NCBI RefSeq assembly: GCF_009389715.1
Contig: NC_052397.1
Location: 17,804,129 to 17,868,128, forward strand
Direction of reading: 5' to 3'
DNA: 64,000 bases
Origin: Phoenix dactylifera
Lineage: Eukaryota > Streptophyta > Magnoliopsida > Arecales > Arecaceae
Of the stretch, positions 19,921 through 58,718 are shown piece after piece. The notes beneath the pieces are model-generated. The model was not told the DNA's origin, made no database searches, and saw only the letters and a program-made list of their open reading frames with translations. Made by a program: the position numbers and the translations under genes. Positions within the stretch are counted from its first letter, which is position 1. Every line of letters begins with the position of its first letter.

Positions 19921-21225
19921 GGTGCTACTGATCTCATAGATGTTGATATAAGAAAAAAAATTAATAAAATTGTACCTCAATGGAAGAATCACGGCCAATA
20001 TATCATCCATGTAAACTTGGATCTGCAGGTCTTGTAGTGAGGTTTGCACCTGACGTTCTTGTATGAATGCTTGTAATATTTTTGCATGATATGAAAAGCT
20101 GATTATTTGTCTCGTCCTCAATTTTACAATATGGTAAGCCATGTTGTTTATATTTTATGATAAATTAGTCTTTTAGTTTCAGCTAAGATGGATCTGAGGG
20201 AAACTTGGGGTTGTTGACTAGAAAGATCTTGATCTTTCTTTGCATCTAGCATTAGATATAATGCCAATTGAGGCGAAGATCTCACAACTTCTAACTCCAG
20301 CTTAAAAGTTGTTAAGAGTTCTGCAGTGATTTTTACTATCAAACAATTAAAGGATGGTTATTCAAATAGGGATTTGCAATATTGCTTGGCACTTGTGGAA
20401 CTCAGCCATCTAGAGAACAGAAACAAATAAATTGCCACAACCAGAGAATTCTGGAAGACCTGATGATGAATGCTATGCCTGAGAACTGGACACTATAAAT
20501 CCAAGTTAACTGTTGCAGATTTTATTTTCTGCACTTAGAACCACTTAACTTGCTGGCAACTGCAAGCTAGCATAATGGCTAGTCTAACTTAATTTTCCTT
20601 CTTGCAGTTTGATGCATATAATACTGCCAGCCCAGTACTAAAATTCTCCAAAATAAATAATAATTTACATTCCTAATTGATTTTCTTAAATTAAACAATT
20701 TCCATTGCAGGAAGATTGTTTTACTTGCCTAAATCACAAAGTATAAACCAACAACAAAATTTACATGAAAATTTATGCTCTTTATTTTCATCCCCTCTAT
20801 TCCAATCTACAAATCTATGATGTATACTCTCTATTTAGATAAGCGAGGGCCTCCTTATTTGAGTTGGATTTTTTTTCTAACTCTAAAAAAAATATATATC
20901 CAATTCTCTATTATTTTATAAATGCATATAAATGCACATATATACAATTCCTTATTATTGCTTTCTTAATCTAATCAAAGTTCTCCCTTAATCAAAAAGA
21001 ATCCAAATTACCAAAAATAATGATATACTTTAAGAACTTTTAGATTTGGTGAGAAGGTACGTCTTTACCCCTACGTTACCAAATTCTTCTTAGATTAGAA
21101 TTTATTGCTTTCCAAAATTTTGGTGTTTGATTAAGTCTCGAATATGGCAAGTCTTTGTCCTAGATTGCATCTATACTTATATAGAGTGACTAGAGTGATC
21201 CACCTTGATTCTGATAATCCTCATA
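19921..21225. other. AT-rich spacer, no gene seen
   Basis: Short open frames on the minus strand (19912-20342) lack domains and splice context. There are a few A and T runs. I see no promoter, RNA gene or transposon end. Confidence 0.5.
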
Positions 21226-22385
21226 GATTAAGAGGAGGGAGGGGGAGAGAGGGGAGAGGAGAAAAACAGAGAGGAGAGGAGACAGAGGAGAGAAATCAGA
21301 GAAAGGGAGGGGAGAGGGAGTGGCGAAAGGGGAGGAGAGAGAGATTAGGTGGGAGAGAGAGTTCTGGAGGGAGAGAGTGAACAGAGAGGGTGTGAGGCCC
21401 AACAGTCCCACATCGGAAAGACTCGTTCCAGAGCCTGGGCATATGAGGCGGGTGTCTCCTAATCTTGCAGACGCGTTTTGGGTGGAAAACAAAACCGGGG
21501 AGGGGTGAAGGACGCTTGCGTGAAGCCCCAGAACCGGACAATATCTGGCAGGGGAGCCCCATGTTCCCCCTTTATGTGGTCCCCACGTGGGCACTGGGTG
21601 CCTCACGTGCCTCGTAGAGGCGGAGCGTGACATTTGGTATCAGAGCCGAGGACGGCTCTTGTCCGATGGTGGAAAGGGTGTGAGGCCCAACAGTCCCACA
21701 TCGGAAAGACTCGTTCCAGAGCCTGGGCATATGAGGCGGGTGTCTCCTAATCCTGCAGACGCGTTTTGGGTGGAAAACAAAACCGGGGAGGGGTGAAGGA
21801 CGCTTGCGTGAAGCCCCAGAACCGGACAATATCTGGCAGGGGAGCCCCGTGTTCCCCCCTCATGTGGCCCCCACGTGGGCACTGTGTGCCTCACGTGCCT
21901 CGTAGAGGCGGGGGCGTGACATTTGGTATCAGAGCCGAGGACGGCTCTTGTCCGATAGTGGGAAAGGTGTGAGGCCCAACAGTCCCACATCGGAAAGACT
22001 CGTTCTAGAGCCTGGGCATATGAGGCGGGTGTCTCCTAATCCTGCAGACGCGTTTTGGGTGGAAAACAAAACCGGGGAGGAGTGAAGGACGCTTGCGTGA
22101 AGCCCCAGAACCGGACAATATCTGGCAGGGGAGCCCCGTATTCCCCCCTCATGTGGCCCCCACGTGGGCACTGGATGCCTCACGTGCCTCGTAGAGGCGG
22201 GGGCGTGACAGAGGGAAGAGAAGAGAAAGGGTGGGGGAGAGAAGAGGAGGGAGAGAGTACATGAGGATGGCAGAGAAGGGAAGGCGGGGGACGAGGAGAA
22301 AAAGGAGGTGTCTCTTGATTTGAATGGGAGAGATTGGGGATTGGAGCATAGGAGCGGGAGGGAGGGAGAGGTGGGAGAGATTGGT
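21226..22385. repeat. Purine-rich (GGGAGA)n tract, split by a TRIM element
   Basis: Runs of GAGAGG, GGGAGAG and GGAGAGA occupy 21226-21390 and resume at 22211-22385. The two halves are one tract interrupted by the LTR element between them. Open frames crossing this tract are low-complexity artefacts. Confidence 0.75.
21391..22210 (+). mobile_element. TRIM retroelement with three tandem LTRs
   Basis: A miniature LTR element (TRIM type). Three LTRs of 242-243 bp, each starting TGTGAGGCCC and ending GCGTGACA, lie at 21391-21632, 21679-21921 and 21968-22210. Two 46-bp spacers (21633-21678 and 21922-21967) each open with a primer-binding site (TGGTATCAGAGC, complementary to initiator methionine tRNA) and close with a purine tract (GGAAAGG). 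The 5-bp target duplication GAGGG flanks the whole array (21386-21390 and 22211-22215), so it is one insertion that gained an LTR by unequal exchange or entered as an array. The LTRs are nearly identical, so it is young. It has no coding capacity and depends on proteins from elsewhere. Frames within it are not genes. Confidence 0.9.
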
Positions 22386-22399
22386 GGGTCGAGCCTTGG

Positions 22400-23836
22400 G
22401 CTCAGTCCCGGGCTTGGGCTTCAGACCGTGTTTGAGACAAGCAACTGCCCAAGCCTAAACTCCAAAAGGCTCGATATTCTTTGGGATCTATTTGTAGGCC
22501 CAAACTCGTGCGAATATTCTCGGGCCTAGCTTATGGCCACATGAAAACGACGACCCAATCCTATTGCTTATTGGCGATGATGCAGAGGATTAAAGGGTAG
22601 CAATGATATTATTTAGATGTATACACGCAAGTGCTGAGGTTTCCCTATATTGAAGTCAAATGCAAAAAAATAAATAAAGAATAGAAGTTTGCATGGTCAA
22701 AAGAAAAAAATAGTTTGCTCAAAAAAATAGTTTTGCCCACCTAGAGAGACTCCTTTAGATTATATTTTATATTTTTACCAAAGCGTGGAAATACTAAAAC
22801 CTTGAGAATAGTGCACTATTATTTGTCAACACCTCTTCAACCACCACAAAACTGGTCCCTTATTTCTTACATGCATTTGCAATGAAATGTTCAAGCCCAT
22901 GAAAGAGAATTAGTTGTAATAGTATAATTCTCGCTTGTGGGGGCTCATAATTAAGAGAATAAATCAGATAAGTGTTTTCTTTTAACTTCCTCTTTTGAGA
23001 AACGAAAAAATCCAGATAAGTTTTTAGTGGTGGAGACTGGAAACTTGGAACTTTGTCACCTTTAGCTGTCAGAAATTTAAGGAGAGGAGGAAAAATGGGA
23101 GGAAGGAAGAAGGGCGACGCTTTCCACTGCATGAAGCTTCATATTCATCCAGGTCAGTAGTAAAGAAAAAATATGTTTTTCTGTGGTTATTTCGATCGTA
23201 TTTTTATGCTGCATTAAGGCATGAAGTCAACTTAATATTCCTCACAGTCAGTGATGTCCAAAAATCATTTATTAATAATGGGATATGAGTTACAAATCCT
23301 TGTTTTGCTGTTTGATTATATTAGCTAGAGGAGTTCGATTTCAACAAATCCTATTATTTTGTATATCTTAAGTGGATCTCACTCAAGTTTAACTGAAATA
23401 ACATGTGATTAGTGCCTAAACATAAACAAAATGCATCATATGCACACTACTTCTGATTTTCTTTTCTTTTTTGATCTTTTGATTCTATGAGATTGATGAA
23501 AAGAAACTGCTGTGGATAAAGCGTGTAATTACGTAGGATAATTTTGAATGAAGAATCTGCGTTGGAAAGACAAAGTTATTCATTTATCTAGTTGGCTACG
23601 CCAAGAGAAAGTGGAAGCCAACTGGTAATATCCAAATCCACTTCCTTGAAATGAAAAAAAGTTGAAACAAAAGACTAACTATAAAGAATTCAAACAGATC
23701 CACCAAACTTTCATGCTCTACTCCTCCTCCTCCTCCTTTTTTTTTTTTTTTAAATTTATTCATTTTGGAAGTCGGCACTAAAGAACAAGTACACGTGATA
23801 CTCCTGGGATTGTGCTTGAATTGTAAAAGGCAAGGC
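22400..23836. other. Spacer, no gene seen
   Basis: The part near 22400-22530 has GGGCTTGGGCTTC-type words of a kind common in plant dispersed repeats. The rest is AT-rich with poly-T runs and a short (CTC)n stretch near 23720. I see no supported coding sequence. Confidence 0.5.
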
Positions 23837-25440: not shown

Positions 25441-25894
25441 TATAATGGTTATTCACCACCGCTCTAATTCAATGCCGAGAGCTCCTACTTGAAGAGAGGT
25501 TGGCACTAATCAGCTGAGCAGCCATTTTAAGATAGGATTCAAAATTTTATGTGTTATCCTCCAAGTTTTCATTCATGAAGCCAAGGGTGTCATTAACAAT
25601 AAAATTAAGGACTAACAAGCGAGAGTCCATTTATTCCTTCCTCGAACTTGGTATTCATACGGTATGAACAGTATGGAGCACGCAATCATAAAAGTCGGCG
25701 TCCAGAAGTCGGCGAGCCCATCCAATTCTACGCCGATACGAACCAATGGGTTGCCCAAAAAAATTGTGAGCGCCTCAAAAGGGCCAAATATTTAATCATC
25801 CCAACTAGATATCGCCGGCCTATTTAAAGACCCTCCCCATACCACCCCTCCCATCTTCACCTCTCTGCACTCTTTGGCCAGCCAACCTCCCCTC

Positions 25895-25901
25895 TATAAA
25901 T
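25895..25901 (+). promoter_or_regulatory. TATA box of the phytosulfokine gene
   Basis: TATAAAT stands about 85 bp upstream of the start codon in a C-rich, pyrimidine-rich context typical of plant core promoters. It leaves room for a leader of about 50-60 nt. Confidence 0.7.
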
Positions 25902-25983: not shown

Positions 25984-26333
25984 ATGGGAAGGATGTCAAA
26001 GTATAGCACGCTGTTTGTTCTAGCACTTCTCCTCTTTGTCTCCTTCAGCCGAGCAGCACGGCCTGAGCCCGTGGATCCAAGGACTCACCAAGTAGAGGTA
26101 TTTATGTCATAGCTTTGTTGCATGAGTACGTTTGTCGTAGCTAGCTTTATCATGAGGTATGGGATTGGTTTATCGTTTATGCCATCTGATGTTGTGGTGC
26201 GTTTGGTGAATAGGCTGTGGAGGAGGCCAGTTTTGATGAAGGGTGTGGCGTAGTTGGCGAGGAGGAGTGCTTGATGAGGAGGACCCTTGCGGCTCACACT
26301 GACTACATCTATACCAAAGAGAAGAAGAACTGA
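25984..26333 (+). CDS. PSK: Phytosulfokine precursor with YIYTK core, 2 exons
   Basis: Exons 25984-26097 and 26214-26333 join in phase across a 116-bp GT-AG intron to give 77 residues. Residues 1-24 form a signal peptide (basic start, then [15 protein letters not shown]), so the product should be secreted. The C-terminal half has the family signature: two cysteines (49 and 57), [12 protein letters not shown], then Asp68 next to YIYTK (69-73) and a short basic tail. Phytosulfokine is a disulfated pentapeptide, cut from such precursors after tyrosine sulfation and sensed by leucine-rich-repeat receptor kinases; it promotes cell growth. The acidic residue before the first tyrosine, expected for the sulfotransferase, is kept. 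The odd point is Lys (AAA) where the family has Gln, so the mature peptide would differ at position 5. The rest of the precursor looks intact. It could be a variant hormone or a drifting paralog. Confidence 0.9.
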
Positions 26334-37082: not shown

Positions 37083-38336
37083 TTAAGCTGGCATCAAAAG
37101 CCTCGTACCGATCGACACATGCAAGCACAAGGCTAGACACATTGTAAATATCGACATGGACTTGGCACTGACATACCTCACTACTTCCAAACCCCTCTCC
37201 ACCACCTCTTCACGGACAACACTGACACTGCTCCTCGCTCCATCGTAGAGCTTCAATAGCAGGAATTCAAGAAAAGACCTCACTGTCTCAAAGGTCACTC
37301 TCCCCGTGACATCGAGAACAAGTCTCCTGTTGCTCGGAACTGCCAATGTGGATGAAACATGGTCGACCCACCCACCATCACCCTTTAGCTTCTTATGCAA
37401 CGAAGATTTCCTACCTTTTTCGTTACAGACTTCGTCTTTTTTATCAACAGCTTCCAGTCCGGCCACAGGGGAGTTTGAGCTTGAGTTCGAGCTCGAGGTG
37501 GTCATCACCTGATGCGAAGTCTTGACTAGAGATTCCACGGCGCCATTGCAAACAGAGACCAAGACATCCTTCACCTTGGCCTCATGCTTCGGATTGGTGA
37601 GGGCGGAGAAGATCTCATCGTAGGCATTGATCGCCATCGTCTTCTCAAGGTACACCGTCACCACCGTGCTCGCAAACAGCTGAATACAATCGGCAATCAG
37701 CTCCCGGCACTTGTCGCCGCAAATCAACTGGACCCACTCCGGCACCGCCGGCGACTCCGAATCCAACCCTGAAACCCCAGCCGTCCGATTCCCCAATTCG
37801 CCGGCGGACTCCTTGGAGTAGAATCCAAGCACCAGGTTCCTCGCGAAGCTCCCGACCACCACGGAGGCGAAGCCGGATCCGGCGTTGGACAAGAGCTTAT
37901 CGAGAAGGCGATTGGAGAAGGTAGAAGAGCTTCTCCGCGGCTCCAATTCAGTGCTCTCAGCCTTCGCGAACCCTCGGATAATCCCGACGGTGAGCGCCTC
38001 GGAAACCCGAGAAATCGAGCCGGAGAACTCCTCCGACCTGGCGATCTTGGAGATTTGCCTCAAGCTGGTGGGGATCCCGTCGGAATCGGACCGAAGAAAC
38101 AGGTTCAAGTCGGCGGAGACGAGATTGACGGTCTCGGCAGCGGAGGACGCCGCCGCGGCGACGGAGATCAGGGCTCTGAGGATACTGGCGAGCTTCTGGC
38201 GCTTCCTGGAGACGGACGGGAGGTGGTAGACTCGATAGGCGCCGTAGCTCGAGATTCCGGCGGCGGCGAGGAGGAGGAACCACCGCCGGCGTCGCCTGGA
38301 GAAATCCAGCACCGAGTCCCCGAATCGGAGAGCCAT
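37083..38336 (-). CDS. Plant membrane protein of unknown function, 417 aa
   Basis: A single uninterrupted reading frame of 417 residues with GC-rich, biased codon use, especially in its first half. The N-terminus has an Arg-rich stretch (RRRRRW) followed by a hydrophobic segment (about 19-38, FLLLAAAGISSYGAYRVY). The middle has several Ala- and Ser-rich helices and moderately hydrophobic stretches (about 160-178, FASVVVGSFARNLVLGFY), then a Ser-rich low-complexity linker (about 282-293), and a second clear hydrophobic helix closes the protein (about 394-415). This suggests an organelle- or endomembrane-anchored protein with two terminal membrane segments. I recognise it only as a plant protein of unknown function. 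No catalytic motif is visible. It is transcribed away from the RsmE gene about 1.9 kb away. The start is the first ATG of the frame. Confidence 0.85.
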   Translation of the reverse strand: MALRFGDSVLDFSRRRRRWFLLLAAAGISSYGAYRVYHLPSVSRKRQKLASILRALISVAAAASSAAETVNLVSADLNLFLRSDSDGIPTSLRQISKIARSEEFSGSISRVSEALTVGIIRGFAKAESTELEPRRSSSTFSNRLLDKLLSNAGSGFASVVVGSFARNLVLGFYSKESAGELGNRTAGVSGLDSESPAVPEWVQLICGDKCRELIADCIQLFASTVVTVYLEKTMAINAYDEIFSALTNPKHEAKVKDVLVSVCNGAVESLVKTSHQVMTTSSSNSSSNSPVAGLEAVDKKDEVCNEKGRKSSLHKKLKGDGGWVDHVSSTLAVPSNRRLVLDVTGRVTFETVRSFLEFLLLKLYDGARSSVSVVREEVVERGLEVVRYVSAKSMSIFTMCLALCLHVSIGTRLLMPA

Positions 38337-38344
38337 AGGGGGAG

Positions 38345-39689
38345 GGATCGATAGGGATTAGCCTAGGGTTTTGGTATTGGGACCTAGAATTTCGGGCATG
38401 GGAGGGTTGGGGTTCTCGAGATCAGCGGCCGTCGCAAAGAGCGGAGGGCGGAGGATGGTTGCGAAATGGAACGGCTTTTCCAGCGGGAAATATAATGGTT
38501 CCTTCAGATATATTAAAGTCGTTACGGTCGTTCCCTTCAAGAAGGGACAAGGAGAAATAGACAGGAGGTCCGAGATGACCGAATTTTGGGAGCCCTAAGG
38601 GTATTTTGGTACTTTAGAAAAGTCGAGGCTGGTTGTGGTTACCGCTCTTCTTTTGTGATCGAAATGGATTAGCGCGTTGACTGGTTGACTTGGACGGAGG
38701 GAGGGAGAGGTGAGTGAACGAAAGCACCAAGGCGGAGGTTGTGATATTCCACGCCATCCGTATAACAGAACAACGCGGTCAACGCGCGCTTAGAAATATG
38801 TATGCGGGATGAGATCTGCCATTCGTGATTGGTTCGGACTCTCGAACGCACATGAGATCATTTCCGCATAGAAGTTTGTCTGCGCAGAAGTTTTCACCGC
38901 GAGGTTGGTCTAGTGTTCTGCGGATTTATTTAATTATTTTCCTTGTCTGGTTTGCCGCTGAGAATGGGTGGTTAGGGGTATTTTTGGAATTTCGTGAGGC
39001 GGAAAGAGGTGCGAGAGGGATTGGAAACTTCGTTGGTTGACGAATAGTAGGGGGCTGTTAATTGGGTGCATCATGGTAGGTGAATGTCGCGGTCATCCAA
39101 CCATCGACGACGTATGCCAATTTCATTCACACTGGATGCGACACTACGCAATATCACCGCATGGGAGAAATTAATGTGGCTTATGTGAATGGATGTCCAA
39201 CTGAGTCTTATTCTTGAGTAGTATTTTGGAGTGTCAAAACTAACAGTTGGTTTTTTAATGAGAAAGGCAAGTCAACAACTTAATCATGCAAAAATTTATG
39301 GGGTAGCTAGGTCATTTAATAATTTATTAAAACAGATCATAAATACCTTCTTGGGTAGCAAGTTATCAGAGAATAAACTTGGGATAAAGAGGCTTAGTTG
39401 CCGCAATCCAAAATCTTACTCCTAGCTAGAAGACATTTTTTAAAAATTTTAATTTTATATAAATATTTAAAATATATCCAATACATAGTCAGGAATCAAG
39501 ATAGAACAAAATATACATTCACATGGATCTTCGTATGAGAACTTGTCCCTAAATACAAAACATATGATCCACAAGTGTGTACCAGTGATCGGCTCCAACT
39601 GGCTAAGCCTAAAAGAAAATTAGCTCTGAATCAAATGGTCATATTTTATTCCAACTGGCCTCGTTCATGCCAGAGTGCACTTAGAGGCT
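38345..39689. other. Spacer between two divergent genes
   Basis: The first few hundred bases should hold the promoter of the minus-strand membrane-protein gene; no TATA box is obvious. The rest is spacer. Short frames here lack any support. Confidence 0.4.
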
Positions 39690-55483: not shown

Positions 55484-58202
55484 CCCCCTATTGCTAAGGA
55501 CACCTCCCAAAAACCAAAAAGAAAATACCCAAACTAACCTTTAGTGTAATTACCATATTGCCCTTGAAATTTTCTCATACACCCCCCTTCCTCCTTCTCC
55601 GTTTCGTTTTGAAAAGAAAAAAAAAAAAATCCCTCAAACCCCCCTTAAACCCCTCGATCCATTTACATCGTTTAGGCGATCTTTGAAGGAGATTTAAGCC
55701 CCATTCGAAGCATGGACAAGCAACTAGTGATTTGGGACGAAGAATCGGCCGCAAAGGTACGTGTTCCACCTTGTTTCGAAATTTTTTTTTTTTTCACGGT
55801 TCGTGCTCCGTTCGGTACTGGATCGCCGAACAAAAGGCTTCTGTTCGGCTGAACAGTGCCGAACAGAAGCCTTCTGTTCGGCAACCCTCAACCGAACAGA
55901 TCTGTTCGGCTGCACAGTGCCGAACAGAAGGCTTCTGTCCGGCATTGTTCAGCCGAATAGAAGCCTTTTGTTCGGCGATCCAGTGCCGAACGGAGCACGA
56001 ACCGTGAAAAAAAAGAATTTCGGGAGAAGCCGGCGAGGTGGTCGGAGATCGGGAGAATGCCGGCGACGAGAGGGAGAAAGGGGAACGGGGGGGGTTTTGG
56101 GCGTTGGCGAGGTGTTTTGGAGGGGAAGAGCGGGGTGGGGGGGGGGGTTTGGGGGGTGTAGAGAGCAATTTAGGTGAGGGGGTGGGGAGGGTGGGGGGTA
56201 ATTTAGGAATTTTTAATTTTTTAGGGGTGTCCTTAGCAAATGGGGGGTGTAGAGAGTATTTAATTTTTTTTTAATTTTTGGGGGGTGTCCTGAGCAATAG
56301 GGGGGGTGTATATAGAACCACCCCGGTGATATGCGGCCATTCGTTACCTCTAGGGATCAGAACCCGACTCTTATTGGAACTCGGTTAGACGGTGATTTGC
56401 CACGTGTCATCTACTGGCCCACCAGAAGCGTCGTTTATTTATTTATTTATTTTTTGGTAACATATGATTATTTGTTTTTAACCGACTAAATAGTTGAAGT
56501 CTCTCTAAGCTGGAATTCAGATTTTCCATCGATATAGCGTAACGGATCTACCGCGAGGTTTATCCGTTAACTTAACGACTTTAACGCGTGAATTCTTTGC
56601 CAAATGACTGCTACGTTTCTCACGCTATGAGTTGCTTGATAAAAATATATATAAAAAAAGAGACACTTGGATGTTTTCTTTGTGTTAACGAAGGCATCGC
56701 AATGTCTTAATGGAACTCCCGCCATTTTACTTATCTCATGAAATAAAAGGAGCACAGATCTAAATAGATAGACAAATACATTGGTTTCTTATTGAAGAGA
56801 TAAAAATAGTGAAAAGCTTTCGGCTTCTCGCAATCCAGGTGGACAGCGCCAACAGGCATGGGATACTGCTGGACATGGTACAGGTCCTCAGCGAGCTCGA
56901 CCTCGTCATCTCCAAATCCTACATCTCATCCGACGGTGGATGGCTTATGGATGGTATACGCCGTTACCTTCTCTCTATCTATAGAAATATAGAATCCCCA
57001 CTCGTGTTCTTGGCCCGATAGGCAGCCAACACGGCATCTAGGTGTTTATTTTTCACCGGCAGCTGGCTGAAATATACGTCGGTGGTGGTGCAGTGTTCCA
57101 CGTGACGGACCACCTCGGCAGGAAACTCGCAGAACCCACCCTCATCCGCTACATCCAGAAGGTATTCTAAAATCAAAAAAAGCTGTTATACGATACTTTT
57201 ATTTCGCTGCTTTACAAAATGTTGATGATGAGTGATGATACAGTCGCTGGTGGTGGAGCGGAGCGGAGCGGGCCCCGGGGAGGTGCGGACGTGCTTGGGG
57301 AAATTGGTGGGCCCCGGCCACCGGCTGGCCTCGGAGCACACCGCGCTCGAGCTGACCGCCGCCGACCGGCCGGGCCTCCTATCGGAGATCTCGGCCGTCG
57401 TCACTGCGCTCGCCTGCTACGTGGTCGCCGTCCACGTCTGGACCCACAAACAGCGCGCCGCTTGCATCGCCTACGTCGCCGACCGGTCCACCGGCCGGGC
57501 CATCACCGACGCGGCCCGCCTGGCCCACATCCAGGACCAGGTCGACAGCGTCGTGTGGGCCCACCAGGGCCCCTGCGAGCGCCGCTGGGTGCGGGTGTTC
57601 GGCCCCTTCCCCGGCCGCGTCCACACCGAGCGCCGTCTCCACCAGCTGATGCGCGAGGACCGCGACTACGAGGCCGGCCCGCCCCCGCCGCCGGCCGAAG
57701 CGGACCAGTTCGCGGCGGCCAACATCGAGGTCAGGAGGAATGGGTGGCTGCCCTCATCGTCGATGGGGATGGAGACGAGGGTGTCCATCGACAGCTGGAT
57801 GGAGAGAGGGTACTCGGTGGTGAATGTCAGGAGCCGGGATCGCCCCAAGCTCCTATTCGACACGGTCTGCACCCTCACCGACATGCAGTACCTCGTCTTC
57901 CATGCCGCCGTCAGCTCCCACGGGCCTCTCGCCCTACAGGTAAAATGAGTACCAATGATAGATAGCATATATAAAATAAACGAACCTATTCAAACTTGAT
58001 TTTTCCGCCGCCAGTCCCGCAATAACAAGGGATACGCGGTATCTATATTGACGTATGCGTGACCGTGAGTACTGGGGCTGCTGCAGGAGTACTATATCCG
58101 GCACATGGACGGGTGCACCATTTTGGATACAGAGAGCGAGCGGCAGAGGGTCACCCGGTGCTTGGTGGCTGCCGTGGAACGGAGGGTCTCTCACGTGAGT
58201 TG

Positions 58203-58252
<50 letters not shown>

Positions 58253-58718
58253 TTTGGTGTATATGATGTTTGTGATCCAGAGTTGAGAATAATGCTAGCT
58301 AGAAACTGATAACAGTTTGAACACTTGGCAGGGATTGAGGCTGGATTTGTGCACGAGGAACCGGCCGGGGCTGCTATCTGATGTCACCCGGGTGCTCCGA
58401 GAGAACGGCCTCTCGCTGACGAGGGCGGAGTGTGCGACACGAGGGGAGACGGCAGTGGGGACGTTCTACGTCACAGACGCCTATGGGGGCGGGGTGGACC
58501 CGGAGAGGATGGTGGCCGTGAGGAGAGAGATCGGTGGGAGTGTCAGCCTGGAGATCAAGGAGAATCCAGGATGGCCGCCTATCAAGAAGAGCAAGGATCC
58601 GTCGCCAAAAAGAAGAAACAGGAGTCTGGAGGAAGACCGCCCCAAGGTTTCCCTGGGTAGCCTACTATGGTCGCGCATCGAGCGACTCTCGAGCAACTTT
58701 GGGTCCATCAGATCATGA
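54991..58718 (+). CDS. ACR: ACT-domain-repeat protein (ACR family), 7 coding exons
   Basis: Exons 54991-55070, 55194-55239, 56839-56953, 57094-57161, 57244-57939, 58087-58194 and 58332-58718 join in phase to 499 residues. Four ACT domains appear: 1 at about 38-113 (TLVKVDSANRHGILLDMVQV, ISKSYISSDGGW, VFHVTD), 2 at about 136-215 (TALELTAADRPGLLSEISAV), 3 at about 293-365 (VVNVRSRDRPKLLFDTVCTL) and 4 at about 372-450 (LRLDLCTRNRPGLLSDVTRV, FYVTDAYG). Each has the RPGLL- or KLLFD-type turn of amino-acid-binding ACT folds. This is the layout of plant ACR1-ACR8, thought to sense amino acids. The start ESLxERIxPPRVCVDN-like motif recalls ACR1. A basic/Ser C-terminal tail of about 50 residues follows domain 4. 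Exon 5 is very GC-rich, as in monocots. Intron 2 is enlarged by a Mutator-like insertion. Confidence 0.92.
55450..55482. repeat. Poly-C run, 33 bases
   Basis: Thirty-three consecutive C residues, then one G and five more C, within the left terminal repeat of the Mutator-like element. The length is likely unreliable in any assembly. Single-stranded forms could fold as i-motif (plus) or G-quadruplex (minus). Confidence 0.95.
55777..56022. repeat. Near-perfect 246-bp palindrome built from GCCGAACAGAAG words
   Basis: The left arm begins CGAAATTTTTTTTTTTTCAC and the right arm ends with its complement. The outer core CACGGTTCGTGCTCCGTTCGG (55795 on) pairs exactly with the bases ending at 56006. 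The symmetry continues through repeated GCCGAACAGAAG / CTTCTGTTCGGC units to the centre at about 55900, which reads CCGAACAGATCTGTTCGG, so there is no spacer. Only a few positions of each arm mismatch. RNA from either strand would form a long hairpin. Frames crossing it are by-products of the symmetry. Confidence 0.9.
56333..56838 (+). other. Rest of ACR intron 2
   Basis: Ordinary AT-rich intron sequence between the Mutator-like element and the acceptor before exon 3. Nothing else is recognised. Confidence 0.6.
58208..58249. repeat. (GA)n microsatellite in the last ACR intron
   Basis: About 20 GA dinucleotides lie 14 bp after the donor of exon 6 in the short intron before the last exon. Confidence 0.95.

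What the first reader, a model, noticed from the sequence alone, without database searches (positions are those of the whole stretch)
26214..26333. Phytosulfokine precursor with YIYTK in place of YIYTQ
The sequence shows an otherwise complete PSK precursor (signal peptide, paired cysteines, RRTLAAH, acidic residue before the core), but the fifth residue of the hormone is Lys (AAA), followed by Glu-Lys-Lys-Asn. The canonical peptide ends in Gln. A Lys end would add a positive charge at the part of the peptide that processing enzymes and the receptor see. It could be a variant hormone with its own receptor preference, or a paralog losing function. Intact splice sites, TATA box and reading frame argue for expression.
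Basis: partly seen in the sequence, partly recalled or inferred. Interest (0 to 1): 0.75.

Follow-up and report, generated by a model that had tools for sequence, protein, structure and literature searches.

The report
Natural lysine-ended phytosulfokine hormone gene
A plant gene for the growth hormone phytosulfokine spells its last letter as lysine instead of glutamine, the same change that researchers recently made on purpose to get a more active hormone, so it may be a natural booster version, if the gene is expressed.

Summary
The window carries an intact two-exon phytosulfokine (PSK) precursor gene, 25984-26333, 77 aa, Pfam PF06404 E 2.9e-15. In the same plant genome 6 of 7 PF06404 matches read YIYTQ; only this one reads YIYTK. 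It is an old paralogue (dS 1.0-1.2, dN/dS about 0.25) with frame, splice borders, cysteines and Asp(-1) kept, so it is not long dead.

The telling context is in print: a 2025 study designed exactly this peptide (Q5K) and found it more active than PSK on roots of Arabidopsis, rapeseed and rice, through PSKR1-BAK1 (PMC11994915). The sections I read call it a design; two searches for 'YIYTK' found no paper. Best reading: a natural PSK variant, probably a full or stronger agonist of the ordinary receptor. Expression, sulfation, C-terminal cleavage, the receptor and orthologues could not be tested. Recent decay (as suggested for AtPSK6, YIYTH), trimming to the weak tetrapeptide, or a private allele or base error remain possible.

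The parts
25984..26097 (+). Exon 1 of the PSK precursor: signal peptide ([24 protein letters not shown], by eye) and start of the pro-region; alternative start at M4, 25993
   Evidence: Spliced frame open; exon 1 matched at the loci of L006 (E 1.5e-4) and, weakly, L004 (E 0.08) by protein search; paralogues start at the second Met
26098..26213 (+). Intron, 116 bp, GT...AG, phase 0
   Evidence: same position and phase in paralogues L004 (165 bp) and L006 (123 bp)
26214..26333 (+). Exon 2: acidic pro-region, two Cys, RRTLAAH, Asp(-1), YIYTK, EKKN tail, TGA
   Evidence: Pfam PF06404 at residues 40-77
26301..26303 (+). Asp codon at position -1, needed for tyrosine sulfation and used by phytaspase
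   Evidence: role from PMC10796568 section 5
26304..26318 (+). Pentapeptide YIYTK
26316..26318 (+). Lys codon AAA in place of Gln (CAG in five and CAA in one of the six other PSK matches)
25895..25901 (+). TATAAAT, TATA-box candidate 89 bp before the ATG
   Evidence: consensus match only
25821..25828 (+). TATTTAAA motif, 163 bp before the ATG, with counterparts upstream of L004 (-104) and L006 (-97)
   Evidence: consensus match only

Best explanation
It is a working phytosulfokine precursor gene whose product is a natural position-5 variant, sTyr-Ile-sTyr-Thr-Lys. Inferred route: signal peptide into the secretory path; TPST sulfates both Tyr (Asp at -1 is kept); subtilases cut around RRTL-AAHTD and after Lys; the pentapeptide binds the ordinary PSKR. 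Its free C-terminal carboxylate keeps the receptor contacts, and the Lys side chain can pair with the peptide's own sTyr3 sulfate, giving equal or stronger PSKR-BAK1 signalling. Shown here: gene structure, the Lys codon, conservation, uniqueness in the genome. Shown in print for the synthetic peptide: agonism and higher activity. Inferred: expression, sulfation, cut after Lys, in planta effect.
For: Intact gene and Pfam match. Same intron position as two paralogues. dN/dS about 0.25 at dS 1.0-1.2. Neutral simulation: keeping the frame and 12 conserved residues has probability 0.024 at 0.1 and 0.00025 at 0.2 substitutions per site. No second copy or allele found in the assembly by DNA search. 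Synthetic Q5K: computed ddG -1.38 +/- 0.68 kcal/mol, stronger root growth in three species, more PSKR1-BAK1 association (PMC11994915 sections 3.4, 3.5). Natural variation at residue 5 with activity is known: PSK-delta YIYTN and PSK-epsilon YVYTN (PMC10796568; PMC9662189).
Against: No transcript, peptide or orthologue evidence could be obtained. Residue 5 is Gln in 6 of 7 matches here and in the tea and Brassica napus surveys. The one Arabidopsis position-5 variant, PSK6 (YIYTH), is poorly expressed and may be a pseudogene. The C-terminal cut between Lys and Glu is untested; SBT3.8 is described as specific to the AtPSK1 precursor, whose core is followed by Asp. Not every change at residue 5 is tolerated: Q5L, Q5F and Q5W were computed to weaken binding. 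Omega is an average over the whole history and would not see a recent loss of constraint. The own-genome receptor could not be read.
Confidence: 0.55

Rival explanations
1. The paralogue is at the start of decay: constraint was lost recently, redundancy with the six YIYTQ matches hides it, and Gln-to-Lys is one of the first changes, as suggested for Arabidopsis PSK6 (YIYTH).
For: AtPSK6 precedent: low expression and possibly a pseudogene (PMC11534595 passages). Six other PSK matches in the genome could cover for it. The neutral simulation allows a short relaxation: 47% of runs keep frame and motif at 0.02 substitutions per site and 15% at 0.05.
Against: No frame break, splice-border loss or loss of the other residues shared with both nearest paralogues in the core, Cys pair and RTL..AH motif. 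Lys is a substitution shown to raise activity, which would be a coincidence under decay.
Confidence: 0.22
2. The Lys is removed after cleavage by a basic-residue carboxypeptidase (SOL1-like, recalled), so the gene mainly makes the tetrapeptide YIYT (PSK-beta), a weak agonist.
For: PSK-beta occurs and has about 8% activity (PMC10796568 passages). C-terminal basic-residue trimming of plant peptides is known (recalled).
Against: PSK-beta also arises from YIYTQ, so Lys is not needed for it; added Q5K was more active than PSK in three species, which argues against quick destruction there.
Confidence: 0.1
3. Assembly base error or a private allele: the true or common codon is CAA.
For: CAA to AAA is one base; no reads were available to check; one of six other matches uses CAA.
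Against: The window holds no N and the frame around it is intact. Five of six other matches use CAG, two bases away. No second allele was found in the assembly, though that says little about the reads.
Confidence: 0.1
4. Neofunctionalised ligand with its own receptor, or one that acts as an antagonist.
For: Old paralogue with a charge of its own at a receptor-facing residue.
Against: The synthetic peptide activates ordinary PSKR1 signalling.
Confidence: 0.03

Closest known systems
PSK-alpha (YIYTQ) precursors, Pfam PF06404
   Same: Precursor architecture, Cys pair, dibasic site, Asp(-1), YIYT core
   Different: Residue 5 is Lys, not Gln; tail EKKN
Designed PSK Q5K peptide (Ye et al. 2025, PMC11994915)
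   Same: Identical pentapeptide sequence, if sulfated
   Different: Synthetic, added from outside; here it is encoded in a genome
PSK-delta (YIYTN) and PSK-epsilon (YVYTN) of legumes
   Same: Natural variants at residue 5 that are active
   Different: Asn, neutral; legume-specific; PSK-delta seen by LC-MS
Arabidopsis PSK6 (YIYTH)
   Same: Single family member with another residue 5
   Different: His; low expression, may be a pseudogene
Own-genome paralogues L004 (YIYTQEKHN) and L006 (YIYTQKGKGKGNGN)
   Same: Same intron position, two Cys, RTL..AH motif
   Different: Gln at residue 5; they are closer to each other (dS 0.29) than to the window gene (dS 1.0-1.2)

Membership tests
PSK precursor family (PF06404) | Curated profile match | tested here: met
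   57.5 bits against cut-off 25
PSK precursor family (PF06404) | Precursor of about 80-120 aa, hormone near the C-terminus | tested here: met
   77 aa (74 from M4), core at residues 69-73; slightly short of the stated range, but AtPSK5 also has 77 aa
PSK precursor family (PF06404) | N-terminal signal peptide | tested here: inconclusive
   Hydrophobic stretch [12 protein letters not shown] and SRA-A site by eye; no predictor run
PSK precursor family (PF06404) | Asp immediately before the core | tested here: met
   GAC at 26301-26303
PSK precursor family (PF06404) | Intron position shared with family members | tested here: met
   Phase-0 intron at the same site in L004 and L006, the two compared
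PSK-alpha type | Pentapeptide YIYTQ | tested here: not met
   YIYTK
PSK-gamma, -delta, -epsilon types | YVYTQ, YIYTN, YVYTN | tested here: not met
   YIYTK; type sequences
Bioactive PSK hormone | Two sulfated Tyr and release as a pentapeptide | not testable with these tools
   Needs mass spectrometry
Bioactive PSK hormone | Activates PSKR | not tested
   Shown in print for the synthetic peptide only (PMC11994915)

The most novel reading that the evidence does not exclude
A plant lineage has naturally evolved, in one old and retained PSK paralogue, the very Gln5-to-Lys hormone that was recently designed as a super-agonist. The internal Lys5-sTyr3 sulfate pair would give a high-potency PSK released only where this paralogue is expressed: a fifth natural bioactive PSK type, and the first of them with a basic fifth residue. 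It could have been overlooked in peptide surveys because Lys and Gln differ by only 0.036 Da.
Probability: 0.35. Interest if true: 0.78.

Novelty: new variant of a known kind. Interest (0 to 1): 0.6.

Why it matters
Bioactive natural PSK types other than YIYTQ are reported from legumes only (PMC10796568). A natural YIYTK would show that residue 5 is a tunable site in evolution and give an in vivo counterpart to a designed growth-promoting peptide. It also makes a question testable: why do most known PSKs keep Gln if Lys is stronger (over-signalling, growth-defence balance, or processing)? And it warns that Lys5-PSK and PSK-alpha have almost the same mass (846.278 against 846.241, 43 ppm).

Tried and rejected
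Second copy or allele of the gene: of 3 DNA matches in the assembly, one is the window itself (100%) and two are the paralogues at 73-74%. Other YIYTK genes: 7 pattern places, 6 without PSK context. PSK-like solved structures: none at E up to 1. Known RNA families at gathering score and tRNAs in the window: none. Bacterial-type promoter and terminator scan: nothing found, not meaningful for a plant gene.

Receptor of the same genome: a first, badly written pattern for the island-domain motif gave no hit; the corrected one gave 41 hits, no more than its reversed control (73). All 41 were read: the motif lies in stop-free frames of at most 112 aa, and by eye none is a leucine-rich-repeat protein. 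This does not show that PSKR is absent. A homology search with a receptor kinase domain did not complete, so receptor co-variation was not tested.

Neutral simulation: substitutions only, no indels; the 12 residues were chosen by me after seeing that they are kept, so it bounds a long neutral period and is not a formal test. dS near 1 from 74-77 codons is imprecise. The family search scored 9 candidates and reported 7, so the gene count is a lower bound. L003 was first read on the wrong strand and then reversed.

Recalled, not from a call: the assembly looks like date palm (Phoenix dactylifera) by size and contig count (one search gave only the taxonomy of that name, only a listing of 13 papers); [Lys5]PSK derivatives were used long ago as affinity probes for the PSK receptor (brought up no text on it in the 5 of 6 listed papers opened); SOL1-type carboxypeptidase.

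Mended: statements on that paper, on the surveys and on the receptor pattern.

Full report
What is there. The + strand carries a two-exon gene: exon 1 25984-26097, intron 26098-26213 (GT...AG, 116 bp, phase 0), exon 2 26214-26333 with TGA. The spliced frame is 234 bp and gives [77 protein letters not shown]. It matches the Pfam PSK family at 57.5 bits, cut-off 25, E 2.9e-15. Translation may start at 25984 or at the second Met, 25993, where the two closest paralogues start. A TATAAAT lies 89 bp before the first ATG, and a TATTTAAA motif at -163 has counterparts at -104 and -97 in the two paralogues.

Is it unusual in its own genome? The window lies in a 773-Mb plant assembly of 2391 contigs; the size fits date palm, but that is recalled and untested. 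A search with PF06404 scored 9 candidates and reported 7 matches, all above the cut-off. Six read YIYTQ and one, the window, reads YIYTK. Two of the six (L001, L002) agree at 693 of 700 bases around the gene and may be two haplotypes of one locus (inference). The codon for residue 5 is CAG in five of the six others, CAA in one, AAA in the window. Seven places fit a degenerate pattern for DYIYTKxK, and only the window one has the PSK context. A DNA search found no second copy or allele of the gene, only two paralogues at 73-74%.

Is the gene alive? The nearest paralogues, L004 and L006, have the intron at the same place and phase. Counts by the Nei-Gojobori method give dS 1.21, dN 0.30 against L004 and dS 1.03, dN 0.25 against L006, so omega is about 0.25 for both; L004 and L006 are closer to each other (dS 0.29, omega 0.53). 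The window gene is therefore an old, separately kept paralogue. In a neutral simulation, the chance of keeping frame, start, stop and 12 conserved residues falls from 0.47 at 0.02 substitutions per site to 0.15 at 0.05, 0.024 at 0.1 and 0.00025 at 0.2. A long-dead copy is thus unlikely; a recently relaxed one is not excluded. The simulation ignores indels, and the residues were chosen after looking.

What would the Lys do? I read the abstract, introduction, sections 3.1, 3.3, 3.4, 3.5, conclusions and further passages of Ye et al. 2025 (PMC11994915). Receptor residues R310, T335 and N356 bind the free carboxyl group of residue 5, and F514/F516 pack on it. In computed alanine scanning, Ala at residues 1 to 4 weakened binding and Ala at residue 5 did not. 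Of six further changes at residue 5 computed there, Q5K alone improved binding (by 1.38 +/- 0.68 kcal/mol), with the Lys pairing with the peptide's own sTyr3 sulfate; Q5L, Q5V, Q5Y, Q5F and Q5W had ddG from +0.25 to +2.54. Synthetic sulfated Q5K at 100-200 nM promoted root growth more than PSK in Arabidopsis, Brassica napus and rice, and at 2 uM raised PSKR1-BAK1 association. The abstract gives about 20% enhancement. In what I read, Q5K is a design; the word 'natural' occurs twice, once on residues 2 and 4 and once in a funder's name. The window gene encodes the same five residues.

Processing is the weak link. TPST needs the Asp before the core, and phytaspase cuts after it (PMC10796568 section 5); that Asp is kept. 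At the C-terminal side, SBT3.8 cuts Gln-Asp in AtPSK1 and is described as highly specific to that precursor; a Lys-Glu bond has not been tested. Because the receptor holds the free carboxylate of residue 5, a clean cut after Lys matters. If Lys is trimmed, the product is PSK-beta, with about 8% activity.

What is known. Bioactive natural types are PSK-alpha (YIYTQ), -gamma (YVYTQ), -delta (YIYTN) and -epsilon (YVYTN), the last three from legumes (PMC10796568 passages; PMC9662189 part 1 of 4). Arabidopsis PSK6 reads YIYTH and may be a pseudogene, the other six of seven read YIYTQ (PMC11534595 passages; PMC2667306 passages). Surveys report YIYTQ in 14 of 14 tea genes and in all the Brassica napus genes (PMC11942274, PMC12841938 passages); in five Rosaceae species the YIYTQ motif was present in all but one of 36 genes (PMC7734187 passages). 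One review gives YIYSQ for rice (PMC12349381 passages), while the Brassica survey counts its rice genes among YIYTQ. A full-text search for YIYTK with phytosulfokine and another for YIYTK anywhere found no paper; that library holds open-licence papers only, without figures, supplements were not read, and sequence records of other plants were not searchable. So 'not in print' is limited to those two searches, and the synthetic peptide is in print under the name Q5K. Of the other papers opened, I saw passages only (PMC11658183, PMC11756074, PMC13074997, PMC13082318, PMC11507999, PMC6749341).

Verdict. It belongs to the PSK precursor family, but it is not a PSK-alpha gene: the defining pentapeptide was tested and differs. 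It is best read as a natural Lys5 PSK, probably an agonist of the ordinary receptor. I put 0.55 on that, 0.22 on recent decay, 0.10 each on trimming to the tetrapeptide and on error or private allele, and 0.03 on a private receptor or antagonist. A practical point: disulfated YIYTK and YIYTQ differ by 0.0364 Da, 43 ppm, so low-resolution mass spectrometry would not tell them apart.

Noticed in passing
window 57232-58715 (+): Exons of an ACT-domain (ACR-like) protein: ACT domain matches at E 1.8e-10 and 1.2e-8.
   Followed up: partly
window 37086-38357 (-): A 424-aa open frame with no Pfam match at E 0.01; by its length perhaps a real exon of a plant protein of unknown family.
   Followed up: no
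window 21193-22420 (-): Three adjacent or overlapping open frames share a block of roughly 90 residues (STRHVRHPVPTWGPHEGG...), so probably a DNA repeat (seen; no repeat search run).
   Followed up: no
L006 1498-1638: A paralogous PSK precursor whose tail after YIYTQ is expanded to KGKGKGNGN; the Lys-rich tail may bear on C-terminal processing.
   Followed up: no
L007 1450-1605: A divergent PSK exon (YIYTQDINDP) with Asp right after Gln, the kind of site described for AtPSK1 and SBT3.8.
   Followed up: no
L001 and L002: Nearly identical PSK loci on contigs C734 and C10 (693 of 700 bases), one with KRRMISEAH and the other KGRMISEAH; probably two haplotypes, differing at the basic processing site.
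   Followed up: no
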